Source of the DNA: Zanthoxylum bungeanum
Taxonomy: Eukaryota; Streptophyta; Magnoliopsida; Sapindales; Rutaceae
Length of the DNA stretch: 64,000 nucleotides
Assembly (NCBI GenBank): GCA_019454045.1
Contig: SKCR01034757.1
Coordinates: 1 to 64,000 of the forward strand
Direction of reading: 5' to 3'
In this document: piece after piece, positions 14,297-58,193 of the stretch
Position numbering within the stretch: position 1 is the first letter of the stretch
Layout of the letters: every line of letters begins with the position of its first letter
Translations under genes and position numbers: made by a program
The notes under the pieces: generated by a model
What the model saw: the letters and a program-made list of their open reading frames with translations, nothing else
Database searches by the model: none
What the model was told of the DNA's origin: nothing

Positions 14297-15030
14297 CCTT
14301 CCTCTCTATGTGAAATAATTTGTACTGGTTAACAAAATCATTTTTCCGTTGCTCCCCTCCATCATAAAAATTCTAAGCAGAATTTCAAAAAACGGACCTC
14401 ACCGTTGCGTCCGGAATGGTCGAAAATGGTGGAAATGACACTTCGTTTGTCAAAGTCCGACACATGGACCAATTTGCAAATTTCAGAAATTACAGGGATC
14501 ACAGTGCAATTTCCGAAAGATCAGGGGCCAAAGTGAAATTACGGAAAAGTTCAAGGACTATTTGCAATTTCCAAAAAGTTCAGGGACTAAATTGAAAATT
14601 TCTGAAAGTATAGGGGCTAAATTGTAATTTCCAGAAAGTTCAGTGACCTATTTGAAATTTACCAGGCACCGCTGACGTGGCGGATGACGTGGCTGCTGAC
14701 TGGATGCCACGTGTCTGCTGACTGTGTTCTGACGTGGCGCTGACTGGGCGACACGTGTCGGATGACGTGGCGCTGACGTGGTCGTCTTCAACCTTCAGAC
14801 GGCGCGTGCGGCGCGTGCGCGTAGAGCGCGTGGCGAGCTCTCTGGATGGCGCGTGCGGCGCGTGAGGGCAGCTGAGACCTCCGTTCGATCGCCGGAAAAT
14901 ACCACCGTGCTCGTCTCGCCGTGAAAGGTCTGATGGTATGCTCAAAATCGATTTTCGACAACTTTTGTCGGAATCGACTTTCCGAACCAAAACTTCGTTT
15001 CTGAGTTTCGGGATCCCTCCGAGTAACCGT
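14297..15030 (-). other. Copia element E leader with two repeat blocks
   Basis: This is untranslated DNA between primer site and gag. 14460-14655 is a degenerate tandem repeat of about 30-40 bases built on GGGACTAAATTGNAATTTCC. 14670-14800 is a cluster of GACGTGGC and CCACGTGTC words, with two perfect CACGTG G-boxes and at least four GACGTGG. The frames predicted across it look like repeat artefacts. Confidence 0.6.
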
Positions 15031-15043
15031 ATCTCTGATACCA
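15031..15043 (-). other. Primer binding site of copia E
   Basis: The minus strand reads TGGTATCAGAGAT two bases after the 5' LTR. It matches the initiator-Met tRNA-type copia primer site TGGTATCAGAGC over its first eleven bases. Confidence 0.85.
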
Positions 15044-15045
15044 CT

Positions 15046-15414
15046 TGTTGTGATTAAACACACACGAATAGAGGATAATTTGAGAGAAAACTCTTCTTTT
15101 ATATACATACAAAAGAATTACAAAGCTTCCAATACAAGCTTTACAAAAAACTCTCACCAATCACTCTCACTACACTTTCACACATTTAGGGATTTATAGG
15201 ATATTGATAACTGAGGCTAGGGGCTCCTTTTATAGTGCCCAAACCGCGTGAACAGTGCCACGCGGTTTGGACACGTTTTTGCCAGCCCATACACGTCTTG
15301 TTGCTGTAACTTGCTGGCTTCCTCTTGATTTCCAACTTTTGGTGCTTGCTGGACACCATGAATTTCTTGCTGCCTTGCTGGTTTCTTTTGCCAACTTGCA
15401 AGCTGTTTCCAACA
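15046..15414 (-). mobile_element. Copia element E, 5' LTR
   Basis: A 369-bp LTR, minus orientation, starting TGTTGGAAAC at 15414 and ending AATCACAACA at 15046. It carries a TATAAAAG box at 15227-15234. Its right edge lies about 160 bases beyond the stop codon of the receptor kinase gene, so the element inserted in that gene's 3' flank. Confidence 0.85.
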
Positions 15415-18500: not shown

Positions 18501-18769
18501 GCGAGTTCAAGGGACTCCAAGTTCAAGATTGTGACTCTCTGGTGCCTACGACTACAAGTAACACCATGCCATTGGCAAAAGTGGATGGATTTATTCCATG
18601 AGGCTAAAGCACCAAGAGGGTCATGAGTGATCTTTGACTTGAATCCAAGCAAGGCCACTCGGTCTGTCTCGTTACCCACGACAACCGTAGAAGCCCTTAC
18701 ACAGCAAAAGAAGAAGAATACAAGGACAAAATGCACAACGAAAAAAGACCAAGACACTCTTATTCCCAT
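15575..18769 (-). pseudogene. LRR receptor-like kinase, LRR-XII (EFR/Xa21-like), with a frameshift
   Basis: The only host-type gene I recognise at a normal locus. The start is the ATG at 18769 (MGIRVSWSFFVVHFVLVFFFF), because it opens a good signal peptide; an upstream in-frame ATG at 18910 adds 47 residues without function. Next come an LRRNT domain (DRVALLGFKSKIT, then WNKSIHFCQWHGVTC), about 20 leucine-rich repeats of the NxLSGxIP type, one transmembrane segment (about 16735-16820) and a kinase. The kinase has the GAGSFG loop, VAVK lysine, HCDLKPSN catalytic loop and DFG. HCD rather than HRD makes it a non-RD kinase, typical of immune receptors. A 106-bp GT-AG intron (15988-16093) splits the APE motif, as in this subfamily. 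Near 17000 the phase changes between FLVGLL and LVENLNFSNN; one missing base explains it. Total length, about 1,030 residues, is normal. If the shift is real the product stops before the membrane segment. Confidence 0.9.
15988..16093 (-). other. Intron of the receptor kinase gene
   Basis: The donor is CCAG|GTATTAT and the acceptor AATGGCAG|AATATGG on the minus strand. Joining them restores the conserved APEYGLG kinase motif in phase, which supports both sites. Confidence 0.85.
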
Positions 18770-19816
18770 GTTTTGTTTGAGTTGGAAAAGAAAAAAAGAC
18801 TCCAATCTCTGAATGCAGGGTACGTATGGTATCTGAAGGAGTCGGTTAACAGGGAAGGCATTTATGAAAGAAGAAAAAAGTCCAAATATTGAATTTAATT
18901 TGGATTTCAAAAGAATGAATGAGAAACGCTAAGGTGTCACTGTCACGTTTTTAGTTTGAGTAAAAGTATATATATTTTTTTAAAAGTTTGAGATATTTAT
19001 TTAAGTTAGGGTGGGATATTTTGATGACATGATTTTCAATATTTTCAAAAACAAATGTTAAAAAGACTAGATCAAAATAAAATATTATTAACCATTACTA
19101 TTGAGCCATAAACTTAAAAAGGAAAACAAACTTTCATAAGATAAAAACTAAAGGCCGAAATTTTATACATATAATTTCTTCCACTAATAATCTCCGGTAA
19201 AGTTTTTCTTTATTAATTCAACAATAAGATGTGAGATCGTGTGTATTTTTCAATTAAACAAAGGAAAAAACACTTAATTTGTAGATCTCAACCAAAGAAT
19301 TATGAAAATAAATAAATAATCTTATAAGGTTATTTAGTAATTAATATGAAATAATGTATCATTAAATTCATTAAATTTTCAAATATTGTTAATAGTTAAT
19401 TAATTTGCAATTATTAATAATGATAAATTTAATAATTGTATCATTAAATTCATTAAGTTTTCAAGTGTTATTAATAGTATATAGATTAATAAATAATAAA
19501 TTAAGATTTAGTAATTAATATGGAACAATGTATCAATAAAACTATTGAATTTTCAAGTGTTATTAATAGTGAATTAGTAATTAATAAATAATAAATAAGA
19601 ATTAGTAATTAATAAATTTAATAAACTATTATCAATTAAATAAACCAATAAATAATAAATTAAGAATGAGTAATTAATAAATTTAATAATTAATAATTTA
19701 ATAAACCAATGAGAGCTCATTATTTTGCTTGAATCAAGGGGAGAGTTCTATTAGGTTTTATTTTATATTAATATATAGATAGATATAGGTTAATATATAG
19801 ATATAAATATAGATAG
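18770..19816. other. AT-rich 5' flank of the receptor kinase, with degenerate tandem repeats
   Basis: No gene is visible. 19335-19700 contains about three diverged copies of an AT-rich unit (AATGTATCATTAAATTCATTAA followed by TTTTCAAGTGTTATTAATAG), then short GAATTAGTAATTAATAAA-like repeats. A TATAGATA microsatellite lies at about 19770-19815. The receptor kinase promoter should be at 18770-19000; I see no clear TATA box. Confidence 0.5.
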
Positions 19817-24559: not shown

Positions 24560-26577
24560 TGTTGGACAATTATGACCCATAGCGTCACTATTTGTACAGA
24601 TCATGGTGTTGTTGTACAAATTAACTATGTGACAAAGGAGATTGCTCTCTTATCATTTGTGATTAGATCACCTAGATGTATAAATGATAGAAGGTCCATA
24701 TGATTAGTTCCTGGATTGAGATGATATGAGACAATATCAGTCCACGAAGGATTAATCATTAAATATTCATAGTCAGAGTATTATCGAGATTTTACATCGA
24801 TAATACGTAAAAGACTAGTATTACACTTGTGCGTGTTATGGGAGCATAACGACATAGTTCTTATATATTTGGGTATTGGATACTCATGCAAGTGTAATAT
24901 GAGGTTGTGTTTACCGATGGTACGGTAAATAGCTTCGCTCTGGATAGACCCCTCGGAATTCCATTGGCAGTATGACTATGTGTCTATGGAAGTCCGAAAT
25001 CAGAGTAGGTGTATTTGGTCTTAACTGAGACTTGCACCGCTAATACTTACGACAATCAATATGCTTTGGTTTTGGTCGTCTAGGGCTTTAACAAGTTCTG
25101 TGTACGCCTCTGCTGGGTATATTGAGAATCGTAGTGTATTGGGTGTGATGTCAAGACGGAAGTATCACTCCAGTCATAGTGGAGATGATGTCACGTAGGA
25201 TACGGTATTAGTACTCTTAAGTACTGCAGTCATCGGGATATTATGACTAGGTCATGTATATCCGATTATAGAGACTAGTTACCAGACATCCGACATGTGC
25301 TTCATACGGGGCAGACATAATTCCAGCCTCAGGCCTAGCACGTGACATCCAATACTGGATCGACATATACAATACTACATATACTACGCTTGATATAGAT
25401 CGTTTATTCCTATAAGCATATTTCTGGAGAATTGGGTAGGCATGGCGCTTTGCTAGAAGCCAACATTGTCTTGTAAATCGGTAAAAACGTAGTACTAGGT
25501 ACTTACATGTTCGGATAGTCCGACGACCGAATTTACTGCCAACATATCCGGGGATCTCATGGGTCACTTTCCGAAGATTCACCGATGACGTATGACTCGC
25601 ACTTTATTAATCTAGGATTAATTACGGAGATATTTTATATGGGATAAAATATCATTTAAAGAGAGAGAACGATTAATTTGGAATTAATCGATAAATTAAT
25701 ATATTCGATATATTAAATGAAATTGGATTTCGACGCGGAATTAAAATTGGATTTTAATTCGGGCGAACGAATTAATTTAGAATTAATTCGTTAGTGACGT
25801 GAATAGTAATTATGCTAGGCATGATTATTTAATTAAATTAGATTTAATTACGACACAACGGAAAATTCGTTAATTTGGAATTAGTGAACCTGAGCCCGAG
25901 AGTGTTTGCTAGCGCACTCGCATTTCGAATTCAAGTGCGGCCCGCAAGTCACTTCAAGCGTCAAATCGCTATTCACATCTAGCGTCACATCATTCGTCAA
26001 TCAAGTGATGGATGTCTTTCACTTTGAGTGATTGACACCAGTCACTATTCATTGATTGATGGGAGTTGATGGAAGTGATTTGAAAGCTTTTTGAAAGCTT
26101 GAATGACAAATACCATTAATTTAATATTTGGTATATCATTTGATGATTGTTTTTAGAAATCACTTAACACATTTTCTTTCCTCTCTCTTATCTCCTTCAC
26201 GCCCAAGGGGCTCCATTTTTCCTCTTCTCTTCTGCTCACTGCCGTGAGTATAGCAAGGATGAAGATGATGTTTTTGTGGCAAAAACATCAATAGCTAGCA
26301 CTTAAATGAGTTCATACAAAGGTGATATGGAACTAATTTCATGAGCATGGAATCATCATCACAAGCTTGGAGCTTGGAGACTCACCCATGGCCGATTTTG
26401 AAGACAAGAAGAAAGCCCACTGCCGTGAGCCTTGGAGGACTTCAAATGGCTTAAAAAGTTCTGTTCTTCGTTGCATCGCTCAACCGATCATTGTGAGTAT
26501 TCTGCGACTTCCTTTGATGTATTTGCATGTTGTTTCTTGCTTGATAGTCGATCCTTGGGACCGTAGAAACTCCAACA
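24560..26577 (+). mobile_element. Copia element F, 5' LTR
   Basis: A 2,018-bp LTR from TGTTGGACAA to AACTCCAACA, matched by 37112-39115 with roughly 3% differences by eye and a small deletion in the 3' copy. GGAGG precedes it (24555-24559) and follows the element (39116-39120): a perfect 5-bp target duplication. Confidence 0.95.
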
Positions 26578-37111: not shown

Positions 37112-39115
37112 TGTTGGACAATTATGACCCATAGCGTCACTATTTGTACAGATCATGGTGTTGTTGTATAAATTAATGATGTGACAAAGAATATTGCTCT
37201 CTTATCATTTATGATTAGATCACCTAGATGTATAAATGATATGAGGTCCATATGATTAGTTCCTGGATTGAGATGATATGAGACAGTATCAGTCCACGAA
37301 GGATTAATCATTAAATATCTATAGTCAGAGTATTATCAAGATTGGACATCGATAATGCATAAAAGACTAGTATTACATTTGTACGTGTTATGGGAGCATA
37401 ACGACATAGTTCTCATATATTTGGGTATTGGATACTCATGCAAGTGTAATAGGAGGTTGTGTTTACCGATAGTACTGCAAATAGCTTCGCTCTGGATAGA
37501 CCCCTCGGAATTCCATTGGTAGTATGACTATGTGTCTATGGAAGTCCAAAATCAGGGTAGGTGTATTTGGTCTTAACCTGAGACTTGCACCGCTAATACT
37601 TACGACAATCAATATGCTTTGGTTTTGGTCGTCTAGGGCTTTAACAGGTTCTGTGTACGCCTCTGCTGGGTATAATGAGAATCGTAGTGTATTGGGTGTG
37701 ATGTCAAGACGGAAGTATCACTCCAGTCATAGTGGAGATGATGTCACGTAGGATACGGTACTATTACTCTTAAGTACTGCAGTCATCGGGATATTATGAC
37801 TAGGTCATGTATATCTGATTATAGAGACTAGTTACCAGACATCCGACATGCGCTTCGTACGGGGCATACACAATTCCAGCCCCAGGCCTAGCACGTGACA
37901 TCCAATACTGGATCGACATACACAATACTACGTATACTACGCCTGATATAGATCACTTATTCCTATAAGCATGTTTCTGGAGAATTGGGTAGGCATGGCG
38001 CTTTGCTAGAAGCCAGCATTGTCTTGTAAATCGGTAAAAACGTAGTACTAGGTACTTACGTGTTCGGATAGTCCGACGACCGAATTTACTGCCAACATAT
38101 CCGGGGATCTCATGGGTCGCTTCCCGAAGATTCACCGATGATGTATGACTCGCACTTTATTAATGTAGGATTAATTACGGAGATATTTTATATGGGATAA
38201 AATATCATTTAAAGAGAGAGAACGATTAATTTGGAATTAATCGATAAATTAATATATTCGATATATTAAATGAAATTGGATTTCAACGCGGAATTAAAAT
38301 TGGATTTTAATTCGGGCGAACGAATTAATTTAGAATTAATTCGTTAGCGACGTGAATATTAATTATGCTAGGCATGATTATTTAATTACGACGCAACGGA
38401 AAATTCGTTAATTTGGAATTAGCGAACCCGAACCCAAGAGTGTTTGCGAGCGCACTCGCATTTCGAATTCAAGTGCGGCCTGCAAGTCACTTCAAGCGTC
38501 AAATCGCTATTCACATCTAGCGTCACATCATTCGTCAATCAAGTGATGGATGTCTTTCACTTTGAGTGATTGACACCAGTCACTATTCATTGATTGATGG
38601 GAGTTGATGGAAGTGATTTGAAAGCTTTTTGAAAGCTTGAATGACAAATACCATTAATTTAATATTTGGTATATCATTTGATGATTGTTTTTAGAAATCA
38701 CTTAACACATTTTCTTTCCTCTCTATTCTCTCCTTCACGCCCAATGGGCTCCATTTTTCCTCTTCTCTTCTGCTCACTGCCGTGAGTATAGCAAGGATGA
38801 AGATGATGTTTTTGTGGCAAAAACATCAATAGCTAGCACTTAAATGACTTCATACAAAGGTGATAGGGAACTAATTTCATGAGCATGGAATCATCATCAC
38901 AAGCTTGGAGCTTGGAGACTCACCCATGGCCGATTTTGAAGACAAGAAGAAAGCTCACTGCCGTGAGCCTTGGAGGACTTCAAAGGGCTTAAAAAGTTTT
39001 GTTCTTCGTTGCATCGCTCAACCGATCATTGTGAGTATTCCGCGACTTCCTTTGATGTATTTGCATGTTGTTTCTTGCTTGATAATCGATCCTCGGGACC
39101 GTAGAAACTCCAACA
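37112..39115 (+). mobile_element. Copia element F, 3' LTR
   Basis: A 2,004-bp partner of 24560-26577 with the same TGTTGGACAA and AACTCCAACA ends. The first 300 bases are more diverged than the rest. The target duplication GGAGG follows at 39116-39120. The pair allows an age estimate, with the caution that the internal region is far more decayed than the LTRs. Confidence 0.95.
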
Positions 39116-39663
39116 GGAGGTACAATTTCTATATTCCTTAGGGAGTGACCTAAAAATTTTCTTCACTTGGTCGCTAGGCTCAATGCCTTTCCCTAGAGAA
39201 CTAAGTTGATTTATAATCATTGTAAACCTTGAAATAGTTTTCTCAATTTCTTCATCGTTTTACATCTTAAAGCTATCCAAATCACACATGAATCGATTGA
39301 TCTTCGATTCTTTGACTTGACTAGTTCCCTCGTTTACAATCTCCATGGACTTCCACAAATCATAGGTGTTTCCAAATTTTTAATGTTTATTGATTTGACT
39401 CTGATCAATTATGCAAAGTAAGTGATTAAGAGCTTTTTCATCGAAGGAGGCTTCTGTGTAATCCTCACCGCTCTATTCGAATTGAGGTTTTAGAATATCC
39501 ACATTGTTGATATTTTTCTTCATTGGCATGTTGGAACCTTAGAGGTAGTTCAATATTCTCATCTTCCAATAGTTGTAGTCGGTTCCAGTGAAAAGTGAAG
39601 GTCTATTTATCGAAAATCTTTCGACAAGGCTCATTGACGTGTTGCTTGTGGTTCCCATGAAAT
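39116..39663 (-). pseudogene. SIRE-like copia copy B: gag amino end (part 2)
   Basis: Continues copy B after copia F. On the minus strand 39130-39220 reads IINQLSSLGKGIEPSDQ and FRSLPKEYR, as in copy A at 4600-4790. The amino end (39450-39660) is recognisable by DNA similarity to 4976-5197 but has frameshifts and a deletion. Confidence 0.75.
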
Positions 39664-42465
39664 TCTCGGACGGTTAGGTCTTTGTTGAGAATACCAATTG
39701 AAATTACTTACAAGCAATAACAAGTAACAACTATACCCAAAAGAGGGTGAATTGGGTAATTAAAAAGTTAATGCGGAATTATAAATCTTCTCAATTTTAT
39801 GCTTTCAAGCTTTACCAACAATTATAAATCACACTATTGATTTGAAGTAAAATTGTACAATTTAAAAGATAAGGGAAGAGAGATACAATACCGAGTTTAT
39901 AGTGGTTCGGCCAAATCACTTGCCTACGTCCATTCTCTCTTCAAGCACACTTGAAGATTCCACTAGTTTCAACAAACTTACTACCAAGAGATTTTTCACC
40001 AAGGCTTCTCTTAAACCTTTTATAAAAACTCCACCCTTGAAAGTACTCATAACTCACACAAGGGATTTCAACACAAGTGTTCTGTAAGATAAAATTTTGT
40101 GTTTACAACACTATTTGAGGACTCACTAAGAAAGCACAAAGATTGAAGAGTGAGTGGTTGCTCAAATATATCTAAGATCACTAGTATGTAAATGAAAATT
40201 TATGTATGAGCTCATGAAATGATGAGAATGAAATGATCAATAAGATTTTATGTTTCTCACTGTTTTTTGCTTTTAATAAAATGTTTGAAGGTATTGTACT
40301 ATATTGCAAAACGAATTTGCGGCTTATTTATAGTAAAAAAATGAAATCCGCCCCAACAACTCTTATTGGGATCAATATGCTTTTACTGATACCAGTATGC
40401 CGGTCACAATGATAATATTGTTGTTTGAAAACACGAACGTTACACAAGTATGAACACCGTTATGATAACTGGTATGGTCCTTGTCGGTTCCAGTAAGTAT
40501 GCAACAAATTGACTAATTGGTATGAAATACTGTTATGAATACCGGTATGCTGTATGCCGGTTCTAATAACTATGCAATACTTGAGATCACCAGTATGGAA
40601 GACCTATGTGTAGACTGCTATTGTGTATATCGATTTCAGTAGCTATGCAATCCTTAGATAGAACAATATTATAGACCGATATGGGACTGGTATGGTGTGT
40701 GCTGATTCCAAAGAGCATATAAATAGAGTAGGTCCACCAATATAGATACCGATATGGTATCGGTATGGTACCTGTATACCGGTCTCAGTACACAATGCAG
40801 AAGTTGAAGGTTAAAATATTTTGCACATGACTCTAATGCATTTATATGAATGTACATGTGTCTTATGAGCTTAGATACTTAAGTAAATATTTCACTTTAT
40901 AATTAGATTCCTATGCTAAATCTTAGCAAGATTTTCTTCGATTTGCTGCTAGTCTTCACATTCACGCTCTTGACCACCAACGTGCTTCGATATTTTTTTA
41001 TAATGTCTCGCTAATATGCGTCAAAGATTTCAAGTGTTGATGTCATCGAAATTCATTTTGAGAATATGTCGCTAACAGAAGATATTTTATCTGTTCGGAC
41101 ATACCATTAGACAAATAAACATTTTTCATTCTTTTTCGAGCCAATTCCTTTATCACTGTAAACTCAACTATCATTTGACTTTGAGGAGAAACTAGGTATT
41201 CTATTTAGAATTCAAGAAAAGTTTTTAAATAATTTTTTTTTATCGTTTGAAATATCTATGGTCAAAACTATCTTTATTTAGATTTTTTCTGGGTTGTTTT
41301 ATCCTAGGGACATCGGGGATGAATTACTGCAAGCATAATTTCTGAGCAGAGCTGCGGAACATCTTAAAGAGAATGACCTAATACGAGATTGTAGAAACAA
41401 TTTGCAAAGATTAGAAAAATATTACCATTCACCATGAAAAATACAATCAGAAATAGGTTGAGTTGCAGACTAGGTTGCTCTCTTTAAGATGTTTCGCGGC
41501 TTTGCCCAGAAAGAGTGCTTGCAGTTGTTCGGCCCCGACGTCCCCAAGATAAAACATACCAGAAAATCTTTGACTCAATTAGTTATCACAAAAACCAAGT
41601 GGTATGCTCACACCTAACACTCTAAATTTTACTCGGTATCAAAAATAAAACCCAAGAAGAACAGTAGGATTCTTTGTCTTAACAAAGAACACAGAAAACA
41701 GTAAGCACCAAAACATAATTTTTTTTAAAACACAATGAGAATTTTCTATTAACTTGTTCTGTGAAAGCACTATTTATAGGGATTTCTTTTTTTGAGGATG
41801 AAAGCACTATTTATAGGGAAAATGAATATTTATATAGGGAAAAAATGAATGTTTATCAACATTTATAAAAACATTGAAAACAATAACACCATTGTTACAA
41901 AATTAATTGTCTCAAGTGAAAAAAAAATGTAACTTACAAAATATTAATCTTGCAATATAAAAAAACATGTTACAAAAATTAAAATAAAAACTATTACAGA
42001 TATTACAGATTTGAAAAAAAATTAAAAATATTTTCTCCAAGAAAATATATACACCCGCACTGACGACGATGCACTCATGTGGTGAACAACCTTTAGACTA
42101 CCTCCCCACCCTTACACAAAAGTGGGTACCTCTTGGGGCACAAACTCACTTTACAACTTAACACTTTATAAATAATAGTTTGGCGTTGTGTCTTTTCATT
42201 ATGGGATGAGGTTCCAAAGGTAAAGTATAACTCTCTAACAATTTGTTGTTTTTGCAACATCTCCATTCATTCGAAACTTGTAACTCCCAATTTTTTTTGT
42301 AACAACTCTTTTAAAATCAAAACTCGTAACTCCCCTATTAAAATTCATATTTACAACAGTGACTCAACCCAGTTCCGATTTTATTTTCGTGGTGAACGGT
42401 AATATTATTCTAATCCTTGCAATATGTTTCTACAAATTATAGTTTTATAAAAGAATTGGATAAGT
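39664..42465 (-). mobile_element. SIRE-like copia copy B: 5' leader and LTR region
   Basis: Collinear with 5198-8038 of copy A, including the CCGGTATGG array (about 40380-40790) and the long inverted repeat (41291-41560). A CTATTTATAGGG sequence occurs twice at about 41768-41818, a small local duplication not in copy A. It stops at GGATAAGT (42458-42465), where the hAT element starts. Confidence 0.65.
41291..41560. repeat. Long inverted repeat, ~99-bp arms, in SIRE-like copy B
   Basis: The arm 41291-41389 pairs with about 41461-41560. It matches the copy A structure at 6895-7163. The two copies differ at several stem positions. Confidence 0.75.
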
Positions 42466-49617: not shown

Positions 49618-49626
49618 TGTTAGGGT
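49618..49626 (+). mobile_element. Copia C 3' LTR, first nine bases
   Basis: TGTTAGGGT, cut off by the insertion at 49627. Its last five bases, AGGGT, are one copy of the target duplication. The LTR resumes at 57823. Confidence 0.8.
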
Positions 49627-49937
49627 TGATGAGTGGTAAATATATCACTTTTTTCCCACTCATTTGACCTAATATTTCGTATAGTTTCTCGAGTTTTGTG
49701 AACATTTTGATATGTTTTGTTGTTATTTTACAGATAAATAAAGTTTGGATAGCACTGGAGGCAATTTGGGGCAAAACCGGACAAAAATGCGTCAACAGGG
49801 ATATTTTGGTCTTAAGCGCGTCGCGCCGCCCAGACTTCCACGTCGCGACGTCTAAAATACGCCGAACAGTGCTAACGTGCGCCGGGTCCACAAATTAGAA
49901 TCTGAGAAAAGTTTGACTTTGCTAAAATGCGCCGTGC

Positions 49938-50344
49938 CACGTGTCACCATCACAGCCGATCTGCTAACTTGCGCATGCCACGTGTCATCATCCTACGGTG
50001 CCGACAGTCATCATCGCCACGTGTGCCACGTGTCATCCTACGTGTCTCCATGTCATCAGCCACGTCAGCAAGTCAACAAGTCAACATTGCCACGTGTCGT
50101 GCCACATCATCATCAGCCAATCAGGAAGTGCCACGTGTCGCAATTCTATGGTGCCGACAGTCTCTTTCCCACGTATCGCCACCTCACCGCCACGTCAGCG
50201 CCACGTCAGTGCCACGTCAGCATCAATTATTGGATATCCTATCCTCATCTGACACGTGGCGGATAAGAATCTCATCGACCAATCAGAAGCCGCCACGTGT
50301 CCCAATAATTGAGCCTCAACCACTCCGCCACGTGTCACCTTATC
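49938..50344 (+). promoter_or_regulatory. G-box/ABRE-like array in the 5' LTR promoter
   Basis: Nine perfect CACGTG cores lie at 49938, 49979, 50018, 50027, 50091, 50132, 50253, 50294 and 50339, mostly as GCCACGTGTC. Several CACGTCAGC words occur at about 50061 and 50191-50218. CACGTG in the CCACGTGTC context is the known plant bZIP/bHLH target (ABRE, G-box). The array is about 100-500 bases upstream of the TATA box, the usual promoter position. The 3' LTR has the same array with one extra perfect core. Confidence 0.85.
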
Positions 50345-50388
50345 CGGAATCTGCAACCGACGAACCACAGCGTGCTACATCGACGAAT

Positions 50389-50425
50389 CCAGCGTCGCGA
50401 CGCGAGCTGGGCGTCGCGACGCTGG
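50389..50425. repeat. Perfect 15-bp inverted repeat next to the LTR TATA box
   Basis: CCAGCGTCGCGACGC (50389-50403), a 7-base loop GAGCTGG, then GCGTCGCGACGCTGG (50411-50425). It is kept intact in the 3' LTR at 56402-56438 and ends 15 bases before the TATA box. Confidence 0.9.
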
Positions 50426-50440
50426 AACCTTACTGAGGCC

Positions 50441-50448
50441 TATAAATT
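50441..50448 (+). promoter_or_regulatory. TATA box of the 5' LTR
   Basis: GGCCTATAAATTCAGC sits downstream of the G-box array and upstream of a CT-rich leader, so transcription of the element should start near 50470-50480. Confidence 0.8.
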
Positions 50449-51812
50449 CAGCTTCGAATTTCAGAATTCAGTGTACCTTCCTCTCTCTTCAATTCTTTCT
50501 AAAGAGAGAGTTTCTCTCTCTAGATTCTTTAGTTTTTTAGTTTTTTTAGTTTTTAGTTTTTAGTTTTGTAAATAATTTTAATTACGTTTGTAGTAATAGT
50601 AATTTAATTTTTACTTTTTACTTTTTACAGTTTTTACTATTCACCATGAGGAGGTAACTTCTCTAGCTAGGTGAAAGGTAATTCTTTTACTATTGCTATT
50701 TAGATTAATCTCCCTTAAATATAATATATTCACTATTTAAAATACTGACTTAAAAATGATACCGCTATATTGGCCGGTTGGTAATTTTATTTTAATCTGG
50801 TTTAAACCTGACTAATCAAGGATACCGCCAGATTGGTCGGTTGGTAAAGTTAATTTTGGTTCCGCCTTAATGGCTGGTTGGACTTAATTTGACTTAATCA
50901 GGATACCGCCAGATTGGTCGGTTGGTAATGTTATCACAAGTTTATATATTATTTTATGGGAGATATCTAAATTAGCAGTAGTAAAAGTAAATCCTTTTAC
51001 CTTAGCATTTTATTTTATTGTAATTACTTTTCAGTTTTTACTTTATGTCTTTTACTTTTAAGTTTTTACTAGCCCTAGTTATGTGTTAGTTATCTGGGGT
51101 TGTGATGAGTTTTAATATCACCGGTTTATAAGGGATTATTTTATAGTTTGGGTAATTTAAAGGTTTACTTATTAAATCTTAAGCTTAATGCTTCTTGTTG
51201 TCTGATCACCAATAAGATTGATATGGTAAATCTAAAATGAACTAGACATAGGGATTTTAGGTTTCAGCCTTAGACTTAATAGCCCACGATCTTCCTTGAG
51301 GATAGATAACTCTTTAATAGATTTCCTTACAGGATAGGAATATACCTGTCGGGCGGGGGTAACCATAATTGGAACTTAAACTTAATGAATCCAGATAATT
51401 TGGTTGACATAGACATATGGTTCAATTGGGTTAAACTGGGTATTTGTAGTTGATCATCGGAAGAGGCTTTTACATAATTTAGTGTTCCAGGTTAGTAAAC
51501 CGATTTATTACACAAACATAAAATAATCACTTCATCTTTTAAATGATATTAAAAGAAATCACAACCTTAAATCTTTGTGTCTTTTATTTTCCTTAGTATT
51601 TTCTTTTGTCTTTTTATTTATTTAATCTACAATCAACCAAATCAATCAAACAATCAATTCCATTCTCCCTTTAATTAGATATCTGTAAATAAATAGATTC
51701 AATAATTAATAACAATAGTAGGAATTAAGTCCTCGTGGGATCGATATTTTTATACTACTTGAACGATACGTGCGCTTGCGTTATACGTGTGTGTTTACGC
51801 CGATCAAGTTTT

Positions 51813-51830
51813 TGGCGCCGTTGCCGGGGA
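51813..51830 (+). other. Primer binding site, Athila/Tat-like
   Basis: TGGCGCCGTTGCCGGGGA lies seven bases inside the 5' LTR edge. This 18-mer is the primer site familiar from plant Athila/Tat-type gypsy elements, usually assigned to tRNA-Asp. Confidence 0.9.
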
Positions 51831-51936
51831 CTTATATTTCTTGAGTTGTTAATTTTGAAGCTATCTAATTTACTTATATCTAATTTTCTCTATCTGTAAT
51901 TTTATTTCTTTCTTCTGTTTTCAGGTGATTGAACAA

Positions 51937-53091
51937 ATGGAACACTACTGGGAGATTGAGAGATCACGAGCTTTACTAGAAAATACACCCCAAATTTGGG
52001 AGCAACAGTCCGATTTTCTGAGGTCTGTTGTCCAGCCCAATAATTATAACTGGATGCCAGAACCAAGCAGTACTACATTTGCTCACCAGAACGCAATGGA
52101 GAGATGTGACATATGTAATGGTAACCATCCAAGAGATTATTGCGAGTACAATTACAATCCAGGGTGGCAGAGCTATCAAAATTATTCATGGTACGAGGAA
52201 CCATCACATTTTCCATCTTATCCACCATCTTCCTTCGATCCTTATCAAGAACCAGAACCATCCGAGGAAGATCAATTGATTCACATGTTCAAAGAACAAG
52301 CAGCTCGATTTGATGCACAAATTCAGAGTAACACAGAATCCATACAGAGAATGACAGATCAGATCAGACAATTCACAGAAAACCAGAACTATATACCTCA
52401 AGAACCTGTTTCAAATGACACTGATGAAGTCTTTGAGTACCATTCATTTCAGAATGACACTTCAACAGAGGAGGAGGCTGAGCAGTATCAACAACCGGAG
52501 GTATCAGTTCAGGAGCTCGAACCAGAAAAGTCTCGATTTGATTTTTATTATTCTGACTCTGACGAGGATGAAGTTGATCTATTTGTACCAAGTGCTCCAA
52601 CAACGGAGGATCAAACTTTCAATCCTCAAAATGAAGATCTTGGAAATTCCATTGCACAAATGTTTGAAGAAGATCTACCTGAGCCAATCATTTCACTCAA
52701 ATCAGAGGATGAAGACCTAATGTCAGACACATTTTTTCATCCTCAGGTGGAGCAAGAAGAAGAGCAAATGAAGGAGCAACTGTCAGACCTTATTAAAGAT
52801 CCAGAGCATTCAGGAGAAACATCGATGTATCGGGGTGTACAAATCAAAGAAATCACCCAGAAGCTTGATAGAATGGAACTTCCATTCCAAGTCAAGCACC
52901 ATACGAGACCTCCTAATTTTCTTTCTTTCTTTTCAGGAACCACTGGAGCAACAAAGATAAAAAAGGTGGCACGAGCACTGAATGAGACAAAACTATTTTT
53001 GCCACTTTACTGTTGGAAGAGACCCTTCAAAAGCAACGCTCACGGGATTGTCTTTAATCGGACATCCAAAACGACATTGAAACCTCCTTAA
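51937..53091 (+). CDS. Gag-like protein of the LOG-carrying element
   Basis: A 384-aa frame from the ATG at 51937 (MEHYWEIERSRALLENTP); the frame is also open upstream from GTG at 51925, directly after a TTTTCAG that could act as a splice acceptor. Near residues 57-69 is a short zinc knuckle CDICNGNHPRDYC, spaced CX2CX3HX4C as in Athila/Tat Gag. A Tyr/Ser/Pro-rich stretch follows, then a long Glu/Asp-rich middle and a basic carboxyl end. The large capsid-type gag domain usually in front of the knuckle is absent, so this is a shortened or remodelled gag. No protease, reverse transcriptase or integrase follows; the element must rely on enzymes from relatives. It may be kept for RNA packaging. 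Confidence 0.7.
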   Translation: MEHYWEIERSRALLENTPQIWEQQSDFLRSVVQPNNYNWMPEPSSTTFAHQNAMERCDICNGNHPRDYCEYNYNPGWQSYQNYSWYEEPSHFPSYPPSSFDPYQEPEPSEEDQLIHMFKEQAARFDAQIQSNTESIQRMTDQIRQFTENQNYIPQEPVSNDTDEVFEYHSFQNDTSTEEEAEQYQQPEVSVQELEPEKSRFDFYYSDSDEDEVDLFVPSAPTTEDQTFNPQNEDLGNSIAQMFEEDLPEPIISLKSEDEDLMSDTFFHPQVEQEEEQMKEQLSDLIKDPEHSGETSMYRGVQIKEITQKLDRMELPFQVKHHTRPPNFLSFFSGTTGATKIKKVARALNETKLFLPLYCWKRPFKSNAHGIVFNRTSKTTLKPP

Positions 53092-53609
53092 CAGATGAAT
53101 TTCAGTCACGTCTGGCTGAAGACGAAAAATTTAGCGCTAGCAGGGAGGCAACCCATACAATTTATTGTAATTTATTTTCATATTTTGTGTGAACTTTTTA
53201 ATTTTGTGTGTTATTTTTATAGGGAAAGGCACAAACGAAGCATTTTAAGACAGAAGGAATTATGTTTGACAATCAAAGATGAAAAACAATTCATTAGCGA
53301 TGGCTAAATAAGGAATGAAATCTTGAGACACATCCTAATGAATTTATACTAAGCGAGTGGCGTATTGCGTACACAATTCCGTTGCCTTAATTATTGCTTT
53401 GATTCGCTTTTCTATTGTAATTATCTTTATTTTCGTAGACAGGATCCAGACTTTTTGACCTTTCACGATCTCTTTTGTTGTTTAGCTAACAATCGTCCTT
53501 TGGAAGATATTAGTGCTATTATTACTCACCATTTTTCAGGTACTATAAATTCAGCCCGTCATTGCACTTTTGAAGGCATCCAGAGTTGAAAAAGAAATAC
53601 AAAAAAAAA
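53092..53609 (+). other. Spacer between gag-like gene and LOG gene
   Basis: Contains GGGAGGCAACCCATAC (about 53140-53156), a phrase commonly found beside gag/pol in Tat/Athila elements. TATAAATTCAGC occurs at 53544-53555, identical over 12 bases to the LTR TATA region and 54 bases before the LOG start. An open frame at 53365-53589 resembles nothing I know. pol appears to have been removed around here. Confidence 0.6.
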
Positions 53610-54263
53610 ATGGAAGCCACTTCAAGAAGACGAGTTGAAAACATCTGCGTGTTTTGCGGTAGTAGTGTTGGTGTTAAGCCACAATACATAGAAGCAGCAC
53701 AGGAATTGGGTCGAGTCTTAGCTGCAAGGAATATGCACTTAATATATGGCGGAGGAAATCTTGGACTTATGGGGATCGTTTCAAAGGCGGTACAGGAAGG
53801 AGGCAGTCATGTTTTGGGAATCATCCCAAAACCTTTGGCAGAGGCAAATCTTATTGGTTCATCAAACGGAGAGGAACTGATCGTGCCAGGTATGTCTGAA
53901 CGACTGGTAGAAATGATTAACCGTGCTGATGCTTTTATCGCTTTGCCAGGTGGCTTGGGCACATTGGAGGAAATTTTTATAGTTCTATCTTGGGTGAACC
54001 TGAACATACACCAGAAACCGCTTGGACTGTTTAATGTTGATGGATTTTATGATTTTCTTTGTGTGTTTCTTGATGATGCTCGGAGAAATGGGTTCGTGTC
54101 AAAACCTATGAAAGAACTCCTCTTCACTGCCAGAACTGCTCCGGATCTAATAGACCAACTCATAGCCTATGAACCACAAGTTGACCCTATCATTTCAAAG
54201 ATAAATTGGTCTGTGGACGATCGTGGTAAGAGGCGTCGGGTTAATTTGGATCTTAACCTTTAA
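53610..54263 (+). CDS. LOG-like: LONELY GUY family cytokinin riboside 5'-monophosphate phosphoribohydrolase inside a retrotransposon
   Basis: A complete 217-aa frame. The ATG at 53610 has a good context (A-run before, G after) and gives a normal LOG length; eight codons upstream are open but lack an ATG. Visible family features are the Rossmann-type start NICVFCGSSVG (11-21), the phosphate loop YGGGNLGLMG (46-55), Arg98 in the MSERL helix, and the signature PGGLGTLEE (113-121) with catalytic Glu121. LOG enzymes hydrolyse cytokinin nucleoside monophosphates to active free bases plus ribose 5-phosphate in cytosol and nucleus. Oddities: Leu99 replaces the usual Lys of the Arg-Lys pair; NLG replaces the usual SIG-type loop; the tail ends KRRR then LDLNL. 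Plant LOG genes normally have several introns; this one has none, so it probably came from a spliced transcript. No stop or shift is present. Confidence 0.93.
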   Translation: MEATSRRRVENICVFCGSSVGVKPQYIEAAQELGRVLAARNMHLIYGGGNLGLMGIVSKAVQEGGSHVLGIIPKPLAEANLIGSSNGEELIVPGMSERLVEMINRADAFIALPGGLGTLEEIFIVLSWVNLNIHQKPLGLFNVDGFYDFLCVFLDDARRNGFVSKPMKELLFTARTAPDLIDQLIAYEPQVDPIISKINWSVDDRGKRRRVNLDLNL

Positions 54264-54800
54264 TTTCCTGTAGAATTTCTGCTAACCAGGTATTATCTTC
54301 TAAACTCTTCTTCTACTGTTTAAGACATTGGGGACAATGTCTCATTTAGGTTTGGGGGAGGGAATTAGTTGATCAGTACCTTGTTTTTTTTTAGTTTGTG
54401 TGTTATTTTTATTTTTAGTCCAAAATTTTTCGAAAAATACAAAAAAAATTGAAAAATTTTCAAAAAATTACAAAAATATTTTGCATTTTTAAGTTTTTAT
54501 TTTGACTAAAAAGGTGAAATTGGTAAGAGATAGCCGAGTAAGGAGTTTCTACTCCTGAGACGTATCTCAAACCTATTTCGAAACAAGTTAATTTTTGTTT
54601 ATTTCATTTTGAATTATTTAATTTGTGAATTCTCCTTAAAACCGACTAAAAAAAGAATCTTCATATGTTTAGTTAGCAGATATTATCAACATATATAGTA
54701 ACATACGGACATGAGCTAAAATTGAAAAGTTTGTAATATTCAGTGCTCTAGTTTAATTGGAGGAAGCATCTCAAAAAGTGATGGAGTAAAAAAAAAAAAA
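54264..54800 (+). other. 3' spacer of the LOG-carrying element, first part
   Basis: Begins just after the LOG stop. 54324-54341 reads GACATTGGGGACAATGTC, a 7-bp perfect hairpin, followed by TTTAGGTTTGGGGGAGGG (54345-54362), a second polypurine stretch. This phrase is common downstream of pol in Athila/Tat elements, so the boundary between captured gene and element backbone lies between 54263 and 54324. The rest is AT-rich and non-coding. Confidence 0.65.
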
Positions 54801-54807
54801 AAAAAAA

Positions 54808-54922
54808 CGTCCGAGATCCGAGTTATTAAGTCTGTAAGGGTGTTTTAACACATAGTGCCCTAAAACCAACTGGTTTGGGAGTCACTGGCCCAAAGCTCGT
54901 TACATGGATCAAAGATGCTGCA

Positions 54923-54959
<37 letters not shown>

Positions 54960-55065
54960 GAAGTCTGAGTAATTAAGTCCGTAGGGGTGTCTTAACACCT
55001 GGTGCCCTAAAGCCAACTGGTTTGGGAGCCACCGACCCAACACTCGTTACATAGATGGAAGATAT
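54808..55065 (+). repeat. Two tandem copies of a ~110-bp unit split by an (AT)n run
   Basis: 54818-54925 and 54960-55065 share GAGTNATTAAGTC, GGGTGTNTTAACAC, GTGCCCTAAA, CCAACTGGTTTGGGAG and CTCGTTACAT blocks at about 85%. An (AT)n microsatellite (about 54927-54956) lies between them and an A-run before them. Tandem repeats here are usual for Tat/Ogre-like elements. Confidence 0.8.
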
Positions 55066-55614
55066 TGTATATAAATAAAAAATAGAGAAAAATCAAAGAA
55101 AAAATCAGAAAAAAATCAGAAAAATTATTTCATTGCTGCAAAAAGGTGTGAAATCTGATAAAACTTTAGGACAAAAATATTACTCTCTTATCAACTGCAC
55201 TTATGACTGTTGTGGGCAAAAATGAGTTGATTAATATTTTGTTGGCTGTGTATATGGAGAATGGTAAATATAATCGGAGAATTTACTTATTCGGTAATTT
55301 AGAATGAAACAAAACAACTAGTAACTTGGAGTAAAAGTTTCACCTGATTAGTCACTAACTTCTTTATTCTCTTTTCGCTTGTCTTTTTGTTTTTGTGTGC
55401 ATTAGTTTTAATACCTTTTTACTTTTGTAAAATGTTTGTGGGTATCATTGCTGTAAACCCTCACGAGACTACAACTCGTCCACTAGGGACACCTAGGGGT
55501 TTAAAGGCTTGTTGCATATGCTAAATGCAACCGTGATCCCTACGAAAGTGGCTTAGTTAATTTTATTTTCATGTTATTTTATTTTCTGTTTTGCTCGAGG
55601 ACTAGCAAAATGTT
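55066..55614 (+). other. 3' spacer of the LOG-carrying element, last part
   Basis: AT-rich and non-coding, ending TGCTCGAGGACTAGCAAAATGTT just before the polypurine tract, again Athila/Tat wording. No reading frame is credible. Confidence 0.6.
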
Positions 55615-55627
55615 AGGTTTGGGGGTG
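55615..55627 (+). other. Polypurine tract of the LOG-carrying element
   Basis: AGGTTTGGGGGTG directly precedes the 3' LTR start TGATGAG. Confidence 0.9.
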
Positions 55628-57822
55628 TGATGAGTGGTAAATATATCACTTTTTTCCCACTCATTTGACCTAATATTTCGTATAGTTTCTCGAGTTTTGT
55701 GAACGTTTTGATATGTTTTGTTGTTATTTTACAGATAAATAAAGTTTGGATAGCACTGGAGGCAATTTGGGGCAAAATCGGACAAAAAAGCGTCAACATG
55801 GATATTTTGGTCTTAAGCGCGTCGCGCCGCCCAGACTTCCGCATCGCGACGTCTAAAATGCACCGAACAGTGCTAACGTGCGCCGGGTCCACAAATTAGA
55901 ATCTGAGAAAAGTTTGACTTTGCTAAAATGCGCCGTGCCACGTGTCACCATCACAGCCGATCTGCTAACTTGCGCATGCCACGTGTCATCATCCTACGGT
56001 GCCGACAGTCATCATCGCCACGTGTGCCACGTGTCATCCTACGTGTCTCCATGTCATCAGCCACGTCAGCAAGTCAACAAGTCAACATTGCCACGTGTCG
56101 TGCCACATCATCATCAGCCAATCAGGAAGTGCCACGTGTCGCAATTCTATGGTGCCGACAATCTCTTTCCCACGTGTCGCCACGTCATCGCCACCTCACC
56201 GCCACGTCAGCGCCACGTCAGTCAGCATCAATTATTGGATATCCTATCCTCATCTGACACGTGGTGGATAAGAATCTCATCGACCAATCAGAAGCCGCCA
56301 CGTGTCCCAATAATTGAGCCTCAACCACTCCGCCACGTGTCACCTTATCACCTTATCCGGAATCTGCAACCGACGAACCACAGCGTGCCACGTCAACAAA
56401 TCCAGCGTCGCGACGCGAGCTGGGCGTCGCGACGCTGGAACCTTACTGAGGCCTATAAATTCAGCTTCGAATTTCAGAATTCAGTGTACCTTCCTCTCTC
56501 TTCAATTCTTTCTAAAGAGAGAGTTTCTCTCTCTAGATTCTTTAGTTTTTTTAGTTTTTTTTAGTTCTTACTTTTTAGTTTTGTAAATAATTTTAATTAC
56601 GTTTGTAGTAATAGTAATTTAATTTTTACTTTTTACTTTTTACAGTTTTTACTATTCACTATGAGGAGGTAACTTCTCTAGCTAGGTGAAAGGTAATTCT
56701 TTTACTATTGCTATTTAGATTAATCTCCCTTAAATATAATATATTCACTATTTAAAATACTGACTTAAAAATGATACCGCTATATTGGCCGGTTGGTAAT
56801 TTTATTTTAATCTGGTTTAAACCTGACTAATCAAGGATACCGCCAGATTGGTCGGTTGGTAAAGTTAATTTTGGTTCCGCCTTAATGGCTGGTTGGACTT
56901 AATTTGACTTAATCAGGATACCGCCAGATTGGTCGGTTGGTAATGTTATCACAAGTTTATATATTATTTTATGGGAGATATCTAAATTAGCAGTAGTAAA
57001 AGTAAATCCTTTTACCTTAGCATTTTATTTTATTGTAATTTACTTTTCAGTTTTTACTTTATGTCTTTTACTTTTAAGTTTTTACTAGCCCTAGTTATGT
57101 GTTAGTTATCTGGGGTTGTGATGAGTTTTAATATCACCGGTTTATAAGGGATTATTTTATAGTTTGGGTAATTTAAAGGTTTACTTATTAAATCTTAAGC
57201 TTAATGCTTCTTGTTGTCTGATCACCAATAAGATTGATATGGTAAATCTAAAATGAACTAGACATAGGGATTTTAGGTTTCAGCCTTAGACTTAATAGCC
57301 CACGATCTTCCTTGAGGATAGATAACCCTTTAATAGATTTCCTTACAGGATAGGAATATACTTGTCGGGCGGGGGTAACCATAATTGGAACTTAAACTTA
57401 ATGAATCCAGATAATTTGGTTGACATAGACATATGGTTCAATTGGGTTAAACTGGGTATTTGTAGTTGATCATCGGAAGAGGCTTTTACATAATTTAGTG
57501 TTCCAGGTTAGTAAACTGATTTATTACACAAACATAAAATAATCACTTCATCTTTTAAATGATATTAAAAGAAATCACAACCTTAAATCTTTGTGTCTTT
57601 TATTTTCCTTAGTATTTTCTTTTGTCTTTTTATTTATTTAATCTACAATCAACCAAATCAATCAAACAATCAATTCCATTCTCCATTTAATTAGATATCT
57701 GTAAATAAATAGATTCAATAATTAATAACAATAGTAGGAATTAAGTCCTCGTGGGATCGATATTTTTATACTACTTGAACGATACGTGCGCTTGCGTTAT
57801 ACGTGTGTGTTTACGCCGGTCA
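55628..57822 (+). mobile_element. LOG-carrying gypsy-type element: 3' LTR
   Basis: A 2,195-bp partner of 49627-51806, ending CGCCGGTCA. Differences include extra CCACGTCATCG and CACCTTAT units in the promoter region. It contains ten perfect CACGTG cores (55939-56345), the inverted repeat at 56402-56438 and a TATA box at 56453. It could promote transcription into the flanking copia C and D sequences. Confidence 0.97.
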
Positions 57823-58193
57823 AGGGTTAGTGCTGAGTGCCAATCCGGATTGTATTTATGTCCGATTCATGAATACGAGCATTTCCATTTTCCATAATAT
57901 TACTTATTTATTGGTAGCACCTCTTGTCTTTTATACACATATTCGATCCAATTACGATTAGATATTTAATTAATATTAGATTGAAACTAAATCTGGTTTA
58001 GTGATACGTGTATATTAAACAATTTACAATGTAGTGCGCAGTTACAACGTAATTTGTAATTGACATTGGGAAGCGCACTATAAGATGTATATCCTTAAAT
58101 AAAGTTCCTGGTCAAGATTTACCAACACGAATCGGTTAGTAAAATCCGCTGAGACCAGTACATGTCGTATATCGTGACTTGGTCTGATGGTTA
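57823..58193 (+). mobile_element. Copia C 3' LTR, continuation
   Basis: Starts with the second AGGGT target copy (57823-57827) and continues the LTR begun at 49618 (TAGTGCTGAGTGCCAATCCG). It is cut off at 58194 by copia D. It shares blocks with the solo LTR at 909-3342. Confidence 0.75.

What the first reader, a model, noticed from the sequence alone, without database searches (positions are those of the whole stretch)
49627..57822. A young LTR retrotransposon carries an intact LONELY GUY cytokinin-activating gene
Seen: two LTRs about 1% apart, a perfect AGGGT target duplication, primer site, polypurine tract, a gag-like frame, and at 53610-54263 a complete LOG-family frame with PGGLGTLEE, between element-specific motifs on both sides (GGGAGGCAACCC and GACATTGGGGACAATGTC). 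Known: plant LOG genes contain introns and convert cytokinin nucleotides to active bases; LTR elements can capture host transcripts (maize Bs1 is the classic case). Inference: a spliced LOG mRNA was captured in place of pol, and the gene now moves with the element. I know of no description of a retrotransposon carrying LOG.
Basis: partly seen in the sequence, partly recalled or inferred. Interest (0 to 1): 0.92.

Follow-up and report, generated by a model that had tools for sequence, protein, structure and literature searches.

The report
Retrotransposon family carrying cytokinin-enzyme gene
A jumping gene in a plant probably related to citrus carries an intact-looking copy of the enzyme that switches on the growth hormone cytokinin; thousands of related copies do too, evolution has conserved the gene as it spread, and fuller relatives also carry a protein resembling one from plant RNA viruses.

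Summary
49627-57822 is an 8.2-kb LTR retrotransposon (TSD AGGGT, LTR K2P 0.014, PBS, PPT) with an intact 217-codon LONELY GUY (LOG) frame at 53610-54263. The interpretation needs correcting. LOG was not captured here in place of pol: in fuller relatives in the same 3.96-Gb genome the order is gag-pol, then a 182-aa ORF ("ORFX"), then LOG, then the 3' LTR; the window copy has lost pol and ORFX. About 19,400 sites match the LOG catalytic motif. Between copies LOG evolves at dN/dS 0.13-0.29 (neutral simulation 0.60-0.82; integrase 0.11-0.19). Element-type LOGs from several eudicots form one clade apart from the host LOGs, so the acquisition is probably old. A LOG (YgdH) domain in Citrus and poplar LTR elements is already in print, briefly. 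Apparently unreported: ORFX scores above Pfam's cut-offs for Carla_C4 and Viral_NABP, nucleic-acid-binding proteins of carlaviruses and kin. The family thus carries a virus-like protein and a cytokinin enzyme side by side. What they do for the element is inferred; one LOG subclade has lost the catalytic arginine.

The parts
49622..49626 (+). target-site duplication AGGGT, left copy
49627..51806 (+). 5' LTR, TG...CA; TATA-like CTATAAATTCAG at 50440-50451
51809..51831 (+). primer-binding site TTTTTGGCGCCGTTGCCGGGGAC (tRNA-Asp type, recalled)
51937..53091 (+). gag-like frame, 384 codons; 29.6-32% identity over 100-109 aligned residues in the gag region of L024, L011 and L016; no Pfam hit; dN/dS 0.51 against L009 (one pair)
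53143..53154 (+). GGGAGGCAACCC; same motif, exact or with one change, upstream of ORFX in 9 of 9 relatives aligned
53218..53409 (+). approximate stretch that stands where relatives have ORFX (Carla_C4/Viral_NABP); no ORFX similarity here
53530..53539 (+). CATTTTTCAG, splice-acceptor-like; TTTTCAG in 10 of 11 copies aligned (TTTTCAAG in L020)
53543..53554 (+). CTATAAATTCAG, same 12-mer as in both LTRs, ending 55 nt before the LOG ATG; chance expectation in the window 0.02; TATAAA kept in 11 of 11 copies aligned
53610..54263 (+). LOG-family frame, 217 codons, intact, PGGLGTLEE; catalytic R and E kept
54264..55627 (+). 3' untranslated region with GACATTGGGGACAATGTC (54324-54341), ending in PPT AGGTTTGGGGGTG (55615-55627)
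55628..57822 (+). 3' LTR
57823..57827 (+). target-site duplication AGGGT, right copy

Best explanation
SHOWN: the window element is a recently inserted, pol-less member of a very large Ty3/gypsy family (Athila-like, by recall). The family carries an intronless LOG gene as an accessory gene between pol and the 3' LTR. In the fuller relatives it is preceded by a second accessory ORF with the domain of carlavirus-type nucleic-acid-binding proteins. Copies of LOG differ as expected under purifying selection, also within the window-type group that lacks the second ORF. INFERRED, likely: LOG entered an ancestral element long ago as a spliced copy and has since been inherited and exchanged by recombination; it is expressed from a downstream mRNA of its own, spliced to a conserved acceptor or started at an internal TATA box. 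INFERRED, less sure: the protein is a phosphoribohydrolase that frees active cytokinin (or another adenine base) in the cell, pushing it towards division, where a retroelement is best copied and passed to the germ line; the virus-like partner binds nucleic acid and may blunt silencing or alter transcription.
For: Order pol-ORFX-LOG-3'LTR. In 20 long loci, all chosen by their LOG: ORFX at least partly present in 17, INT similarity over 250 residues or more in 6, LTR directly after the post-LOG region in 19. LOG-blind sample: 31 of 36 with LOG (L034 only the last 106 bp, L029 542 bp), 11 of 31 with an intact 217-codon frame. Counts: 19,446 LOG-motif and 21,021 ORFX-motif sites at up to 2 mismatches, reversed-pattern control 0 for both. 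Of 40 listed exact LOG sites on contigs 1-550, 14 have a listed exact ORFX site 744-803 bp upstream on the same strand, 0 in another arrangement within 3 kb. Selection: LOG w 0.177 (21 LOG-blind pairs), 0.221 (66 HMM-picked pairs), window-type group 0.176 (15 pairs), clade 2 0.289 (6 pairs), between clades 0.127 (28 pairs, dS 1.9, saturated); neutral simulation 0.60-0.82. On the three copy pairs measured for both, INT 0.11-0.13 and LOG 0.20-0.24; gag-like frame 0.51 in one pair. Clade: 94/91 support for 24 element-type LOGs, 99/94 for 23 canonical. Host LOG L068 in four pieces. Active site: R99-equivalent R in 29 of 37, E121 and E122 equivalents E in 37 of 37 (residues from PMC4979012). TTTTTGCAG before ORFX in 9 of 9 aligned; TATA 12-mer before LOG.
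Against: No RNA, protein or enzyme data. LOG's dN/dS is about 1.5-2 times that of integrase on the same copies, so constraint is clear but weaker. K100-equivalent is L, I or M in 32 of 37 LOGs, so the adenine/prenyl pocket differs. One clade (L046 type) has Q for the catalytic R and is still below neutral (0.289, 6 pairs), so hormone release cannot be the whole story there. ORFX is not always with LOG: in the LOG-blind sample, chosen by likeness to the window, only 6 of 36 fetched stretches show ORFX. Low w in the window-type group could come from recombination with pol-bearing copies; for those copies pol itself was not looked at (1.3-kb stretches). For other species the element context of the LOG is assumed, apart from one Xanthoceras fusion. 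5 of 36 LOG-blind copies lack LOG; two of them have a Transposase_32 ORF in its place.
Confidence: 0.75

Rival explanations
1. One reading: this element recently captured a spliced host LOG mRNA in place of pol, as maize Bs1 captured host transcripts.
For: The window copy lacks pol and LOG has no introns; the host LOG has introns.
Against: Pol-containing relatives have LOG downstream of pol. Host LOG (L068) is only 40-53% identical to the window LOG per matched exon, against 62-70% to AtLOG3. Element-type LOGs form one clade across eudicots.
Confidence: 0.03
2. LOG is a passenger without function for the element, kept only because copying is recent.
For: 20 of 31 LOG-blind copies are broken, shifted or incomplete, some of them cut by the end of the fetched stretch, as expected for dead insertions.
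Against: dN/dS 0.13-0.29 against a neutral 0.60-0.82; broken copies against their nearest intact copy still give 0.230 (15 pairs), reflecting constraint before they broke.
Confidence: 0.07
3. LOG serves the element, but not by making cytokinin: it binds or hydrolyses other nucleotides (for example N6-methyl-AMP), or it acts as a structural or binding protein.
For: K100-equivalent replaced in 32 of 37; catalytic R lost in clade 2, which remains below neutral.
Against: R kept in clade 1 and in 29 of 37, both E in 37 of 37; fold and motif as in active LOGs.
Confidence: 0.35
4. The host plant benefits and keeps LOG copies as domesticated genes.
For: Many open frames exist.
Against: About 19,400 motif sites with many broken copies, a pattern more typical of element-level selection; I did not search for a single preserved locus.
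Confidence: 0.04

Closest known systems
YgdH/LOG domain in Citrus sinensis, C. clementina and Populus trichocarpa LTR-retrotransposon consensuses (Alvarado-Marchena et al. 2022, PMC9289625, citing Steinbauerova et al. 2011)
   Same: Ty3/gypsy elements with a LONELY GUY-family domain; host here is probably also Rutaceae (host LOG 88% to C. clementina, next 74%)
   Different: In section 12 of that paper it is a two-sentence note; no gene order, selection, copy number, active site, host-gene comparison or ORFX there. Supplements were not seen. Steinbauerova 2011 is not held and was not read.
Phalaenopsis Ty3/gypsy elements with an AlkB-type m6A demethylase (same paper)
   Same: an enzyme gene of cellular type retained by an LTR element
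   Different: other enzyme and plant; activity was shown there by in vitro assay (abstract and passages)
Maize Bs1 (recalled)
   Same: LTR element with host-derived coding sequence and no complete pol
   Different: here the gene sits beside pol in relatives, is probably old, complete, constrained and carried by thousands of copies
Extra ORFs of plant Ty3/gypsy elements between pol and the 3' LTR (passages of PMC6317226, PMC7264820, PMC9289625)
   Same: accessory ORF between pol and the 3' LTR, sense strand
   Different: those are said most often to lack known domains; here a LOG enzyme and a virus-type nucleic-acid-binding domain
Carlavirus and related nucleic-acid-binding proteins (Pfam Carla_C4, Viral_NABP)
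   Same: basic and cysteine-rich motif in ORFX, above Pfam cut-offs
   Different: ORFX is 182 aa with its own N and C parts, in a retrotransposon; the match covers positions 35-68 of 91 and 117-202 of 227; Foldseek support is weak one by one

Membership tests
LOG (cytokinin phosphoribohydrolase) family, type I | PGGxGTxxE motif | tested here: met
   PGGLGTLEE, residues 113-121 of the window protein
LOG (cytokinin phosphoribohydrolase) family, type I | catalytic Arg99 and Glu122 (CgLOG numbering) | tested here: met
   R98 and E121 in the window protein; R replaced by Q in clade 2
LOG (cytokinin phosphoribohydrolase) family, type I | adenine-site Lys100 (CgLOG numbering) | tested here: not met
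   Leu in the window protein; L/I/M in 32 of 37 of A3. A binding-site residue of one solved LOG, not a membership criterion by itself
LOG (cytokinin phosphoribohydrolase) family, type I | LOG fold | tested here: met
   AF2 pTM 0.83; 2a33 E 7e-23, TMt 0.95
LOG (cytokinin phosphoribohydrolase) family, type I | release of cytokinin base from its nucleotide | not testable with these tools
   needs an enzyme assay
LTR retrotransposon | LTR pair, TSD, PBS, PPT | tested here: met
Ty3/gypsy superfamily | pol order protease-RT-RNase H-integrase | tested here: met
   in relatives, L018: RT_RNaseH 5.6e-33, rve 7e-14, downstream in that order; protease hits below cut-off and RT core recognised by recall, without a Pfam hit in the piece scanned. 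The window copy itself has no pol
Athila lineage | RT/RH/INT phylogeny | not tested
   called Athila-like from recall of gag and linker sequence; Retrotrans_gag 8e-23
Carlavirus-type nucleic-acid-binding protein (ORFX) | Pfam Carla_C4 / Viral_NABP above curated cut-off | tested here: met
   29.5 over 20.9 and 27 over 23 bits for L026; at E<=0.01, 50 and 51 of 59 homologues match
Carlavirus-type nucleic-acid-binding protein (ORFX) | same fold as viral NABPs | tested here: inconclusive
   model pLDDT 68.5, pTM 0.37; ten of the eleven best BFVD hits are proteins of viruses that I recall as Betaflexiviridae (one is unnamed) but E is 0.12 or worse
Carlavirus-type nucleic-acid-binding protein (ORFX) | silencing suppression or nucleic-acid binding | not testable with these tools
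   no experiment
Bs1-type recent transcript capture | host gene replaces pol, close host parent exists | tested here: not met
   other host LOG genes than L067/L068 were not found or compared

The most novel reading that the evidence does not exclude
A eudicot-wide lineage of Ty3/gypsy retrotransposons carries a two-gene host-manipulation cassette between pol and the 3' LTR: a protein of the plant RNA-virus silencing-suppressor/transcription-factor kind and a cytokinin-activating enzyme. Together they would shift host cells towards proliferation and lower silencing, so the element behaves in this respect like a virus that never leaves the genome. The cassette itself is shown in one genome; the function and the spread of the linked pair are not.
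Probability: 0.35. Interest if true: 0.93.

Novelty: new variant of a known kind. Interest (0 to 1): 0.82.

Why it matters
It gives a clear case of a plant retrotransposon family conserving a gene for a growth-hormone enzyme while spreading to thousands of sites, and it adds a protein domain known from plant RNA viruses to the same elements. It makes testable whether retrotransposons manipulate hormone state or silencing of their hosts, as viruses do. It also warns annotators: some LOG-like 'genes' may be element copies. In one search, element-type LOG proteins of 212-217 aa from Populus, Xanthoceras, Reevesia and Paulownia carry gene-like or hypothetical-protein names.

Tried and rejected
Rejected: 'in place of pol'; recent host capture; neutral passenger; 'a separate later insertion with its own target site' (LOG at the same place in 31 of 36 LOG-blind copies).

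Led nowhere: scans of IMG/VR with ORFX and LOG found no relatives; no tRNA in the window; ORFX had no significant PDB sequence match (best E 1.4); AF2 of ORFX is too weak to settle its fold. Paper searches for LONELY GUY/retrotransposon/captured, YgdH/retrotransposon, extra ORFs, lysine decarboxylase/LTR, cytokinin riboside/Athila, carlavirus/LTR retrotransposon, Carla_C4/PF01623/PF05515, Zanthoxylum/LTR/Athila and betaflexiviridae/endogenous showed no description of the gene order, of selection on LOG, or of ORFX (listings, plus passages of the papers named elsewhere). Search 97 served to find work on a carlavirus zinc-finger protein; Lukhovitskaya et al. 2013 was seen only as a reference entry. 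Genome counts for an integrase motif and the host LOG motif could not be had (tool busy). One search stopped with a script error after its table was printed and was redone; a first gag comparison was misaligned and replaced. One search's alignment step scored L030 and L034 as 'no LOG' and misplaced the diverged clade-2 copies; for presence and intactness I used.

Rows dropped: of 40 scored 3' junction hits I left out the window itself and C30068 (LOG would lie off the contig); two more ran off contig ends (L036, L041), leaving 36. 'Intact' leaves out L061 (217 codons open, but an insertion and a deletion shift part of the frame) and L056 (no ATG). One search used 7 clade-1 rows (L062 missed by a pattern), one search used 8. 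Clade-1 comparisons leave out clade 2, L056 and L029. One search compared 4 ORFX copies of length 182, leaving out duplicates of a locus and copies of other lengths. In one search only the listed exact sites on contigs 1-550 were used.


Full report
The observation. The element runs from 49627 to 57822, with LTRs 49627-51806 and 55628-57822, AGGGT on both sides, a primer site from 51809 and a polypurine tract before 55628. The LTRs differ at 30 of 2179 aligned sites, K2P 0.0139, so the insertion is young. The frame 53610-54263 encodes 217 residues with Pfam PF03641 at 1e-35, AtLOG3 (2a33) at 2.4e-60, and an AF2 model (pLDDT 86.7, pTM 0.83) whose best PDB match is again 2a33. The gag-like frame has no Pfam match and only weak similarity (29.6-32% over 100-109 residues) to the gag region of three relatives. 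The window copy shows neither pol nor ORFX.

A large family. The window lies in a 3.96-Gb plant assembly. A 32-base motif at the LOG active site occurs 19,446 times at up to two mismatches, with none for the reversed pattern. The assembly may hold both haplotypes of some loci (L005/L006 and L067/L068 look like pairs), so this is not a haploid copy number, and it counts broken copies.

LOG belongs to the element. To avoid picking copies by their LOG, I took the 3' junction (untranslated region plus LTR start) as query (1326 first-look candidates, 40 scored). Of 36 usable neighbours, 31 have LOG at the expected place (L034 only its last 106 bp, L029 542 bp). In 11 of 31 the 217-codon frame is intact. 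The other five: two (L048, L063) have a Transposase_32 ORF instead, two (L032, L059) lack LOG but share sequence around it, L032 with a relic of its end, and one (L039) does not match there beyond a simple repeat.

LOG lies next to pol, not in place of it. Among 20 long loci, all chosen by LOG, six have integrase similarity over 250 residues or more, most with pieces of protease, RT or RNase H upstream; 17 have at least part of a further ORF, ORFX, between pol and LOG. Five (L011, L013, L016, L017, L024) join protease directly to the end of integrase, i.e. are internal deletions. The three without ORFX (L009, L010, L028) have the window's gag-like frame. The order is gag-pro-RT-RH-INT-ORFX-LOG-3'LTR. 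In the LOG-blind sample, chosen for likeness to the window, only 6 of 36 stretches show ORFX, so window-type copies are common. Genome-wide, ORFX sites number 21,021. 14 of 40 listed exact LOG sites on contigs 1-550 have a listed exact ORFX site 744-803 bp upstream on the same strand and none otherwise within 3 kb; only exact sites were listed, so 14 of 40 is a lower bound. Whether any copy is fully autonomous was not asked.

Selection. Among intact LOG-blind clade-1 copies dN/dS is 0.177 (21 pairs), among HMM-picked ones 0.221 (66 pairs); within a second clade 0.289 (6 pairs); between the clades 0.127 with dS near 1.9, which is saturated (28 pairs). Simulated neutral change gives 0.60-0.82 with the same estimator, depending on the transition bias. 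The window-type group alone gives 0.176 (15 pairs), and broken copies against the nearest intact one 0.230 (15 pairs). On the three copy pairs measured for both, integrase gives 0.11-0.13 and LOG 0.20-0.24; over all pairs measured, integrase gives 0.11-0.19 (6) and LOG 0.18-0.24 (6); the gag-like frame gives 0.51 (1 pair). ORFX gives 0.38 (6 pairs of 4 copies), so its constraint is looser. In a pooled set of LOG-blind and HMM-picked clade-1 copies the ratio falls with divergence (0.30 to 0.16), as expected if selection acts on transposing lineages and insertions then decay. These are pairwise estimates without a tree and are not independent. The two LOG clades share only about 70% of their DNA while the 3' junctions are 95-97% identical to the window's, which points to recombination between element lineages.

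Origin. The host's own LOG matches in four pieces in L068, three in its near-copy L067, separated by non-matching sequence, i.e. it has introns. L068 is 62-70% identical to AtLOG3 and 40-53% to the window LOG in the matched exons. In a tree of 48 proteins, 24 element-type LOGs (own genome, Populus, Xanthoceras, Reevesia, Diplodiscus, Paulownia, unnamed metagenome or database proteins) are one group (94/91) and 23 canonical plant LOGs, including ones from Populus, Xanthoceras, Diplodiscus, Paulownia and the host, another (99/94). For the foreign rows the element context is inferred; one Xanthoceras protein (P0008) is fused to a stretch resembling the protease region of our elements (E 2.6e-4). 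The outgroup is one long bacterial branch, so the depth of the split is not dated, and other host LOG genes were not found or compared.

Active site. By the CgLOG structure paper (PMC4979012, passages), Arg99 and Glu122 are the proposed catalytic residues and Met96, Lys100 and Glu121 line the adenine. In the alignment of 37, the R is kept in 29 (Q in 6), both E in 37, but Lys100 is L, I or M in 32. The window LOG has R, E, E and L. The second clade has Q for R and still evolves below neutral. So a hydrolase is likely for clade 1, with a possibly different base pocket, and doubtful for clade 2.

ORFX. This 182-aa protein (L026) scores 29.5 bits for Carla_C4 (cut-off 20.9) and 27 for Viral_NABP (cut-off 23). 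At E<=0.01, 50 and 51 of 59 homologues match. Of its 368 database relatives the 120 listed include proteins of Xanthoceras, Populus, Acer, Orobanche and Rhamnella. A low-confidence AF2 model has, as ten of its eleven best viral matches (the eleventh is unnamed), nucleic-acid-binding proteins, silencing suppressors or small proteins of viruses that I recall as Betaflexiviridae, but each at E 0.12 or worse. I found no report of it. The direction of transfer between viruses and elements is open, and convergence on a small cysteine-rich motif is not excluded. That carlavirus zinc-finger proteins suppress silencing is recalled; [quoted passage not shown] 2013, seen only as a reference entry.

How it may work. 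TTTTTGCAG stands shortly before the ORFX start in 9 of 9 aligned copies, and TTTTCAG before LOG in 10 of 11. CTATAAATTCAG, also found in both LTRs, lies about 56 nt before the LOG start in the window (chance 0.02), and its TATAAA is kept in 11 of 11 aligned copies. Either could give the downstream genes an mRNA of their own. The most economical function is that LOG raises cytokinin in the cells where the element is expressed and ORFX protects or re-programmes expression, both favouring copying in dividing cells. This last step is inference.

Literature and novelty. Alvarado-Marchena et al. 2022 (PMC9289625, section 12 read; passages) report the YgdH domain, noted as found in the LONELY GUY family, in LTR elements of two Citrus species and, with a relaxed filter, P. 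trichocarpa, 'in line with' Steinbauerova et al. 2011 (not held, not read). So LOG in Ty3/gypsy elements is known in brief. New here, as far as the searches show: gene order, scale, selection, active-site changes, separation from host LOGs, and ORFX. I rate it a new variant of a known kind, with high interest because of the pair of accessory genes.

Noticed in passing
L026:3767-4312, L024:5579-6178 and 15 more of the 20 long loci: Retrotransposon ORF with the Carla_C4/Viral_NABP domain of carlavirus-type proteins, between pol and LOG; 368 database relatives, eudicot names among the 120 listed.
   Followed up: yes
L048:12-974, L063:165-1070: Copies with the same 3' end carry a Transposase_32 (PF20167) ORF where others have LOG: exchangeable 3' gene cassettes.
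   Followed up: partly
L046, L047, L051, L065: A LOG clade with Gln for the catalytic Arg that still evolves below neutral: a possible change of function.
   Followed up: partly
L032, L059: About 1 kb of other sequence, with a motif like one in the LTR (GCGTCGCGACGC), in place of LOG.
   Followed up: partly
L014, L019: Tandem LTR-internal-LTR-internal arrays of the LOG element.
   Followed up: no
window 9892-15367: Another young LTR element (terminal repeats 99%, copia-like frames on the minus strand).
   Followed up: no
window 24560-26141 and 37112-38679; 3983-7753 and 39115-42194: Two further sets of long direct repeats, 94-98% and 87-93% identical, perhaps nested older elements.
   Followed up: no
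window 15575-18928, minus strand: LRR receptor-kinase-like gene in three open stretches (recognised by eye).
   Followed up: no
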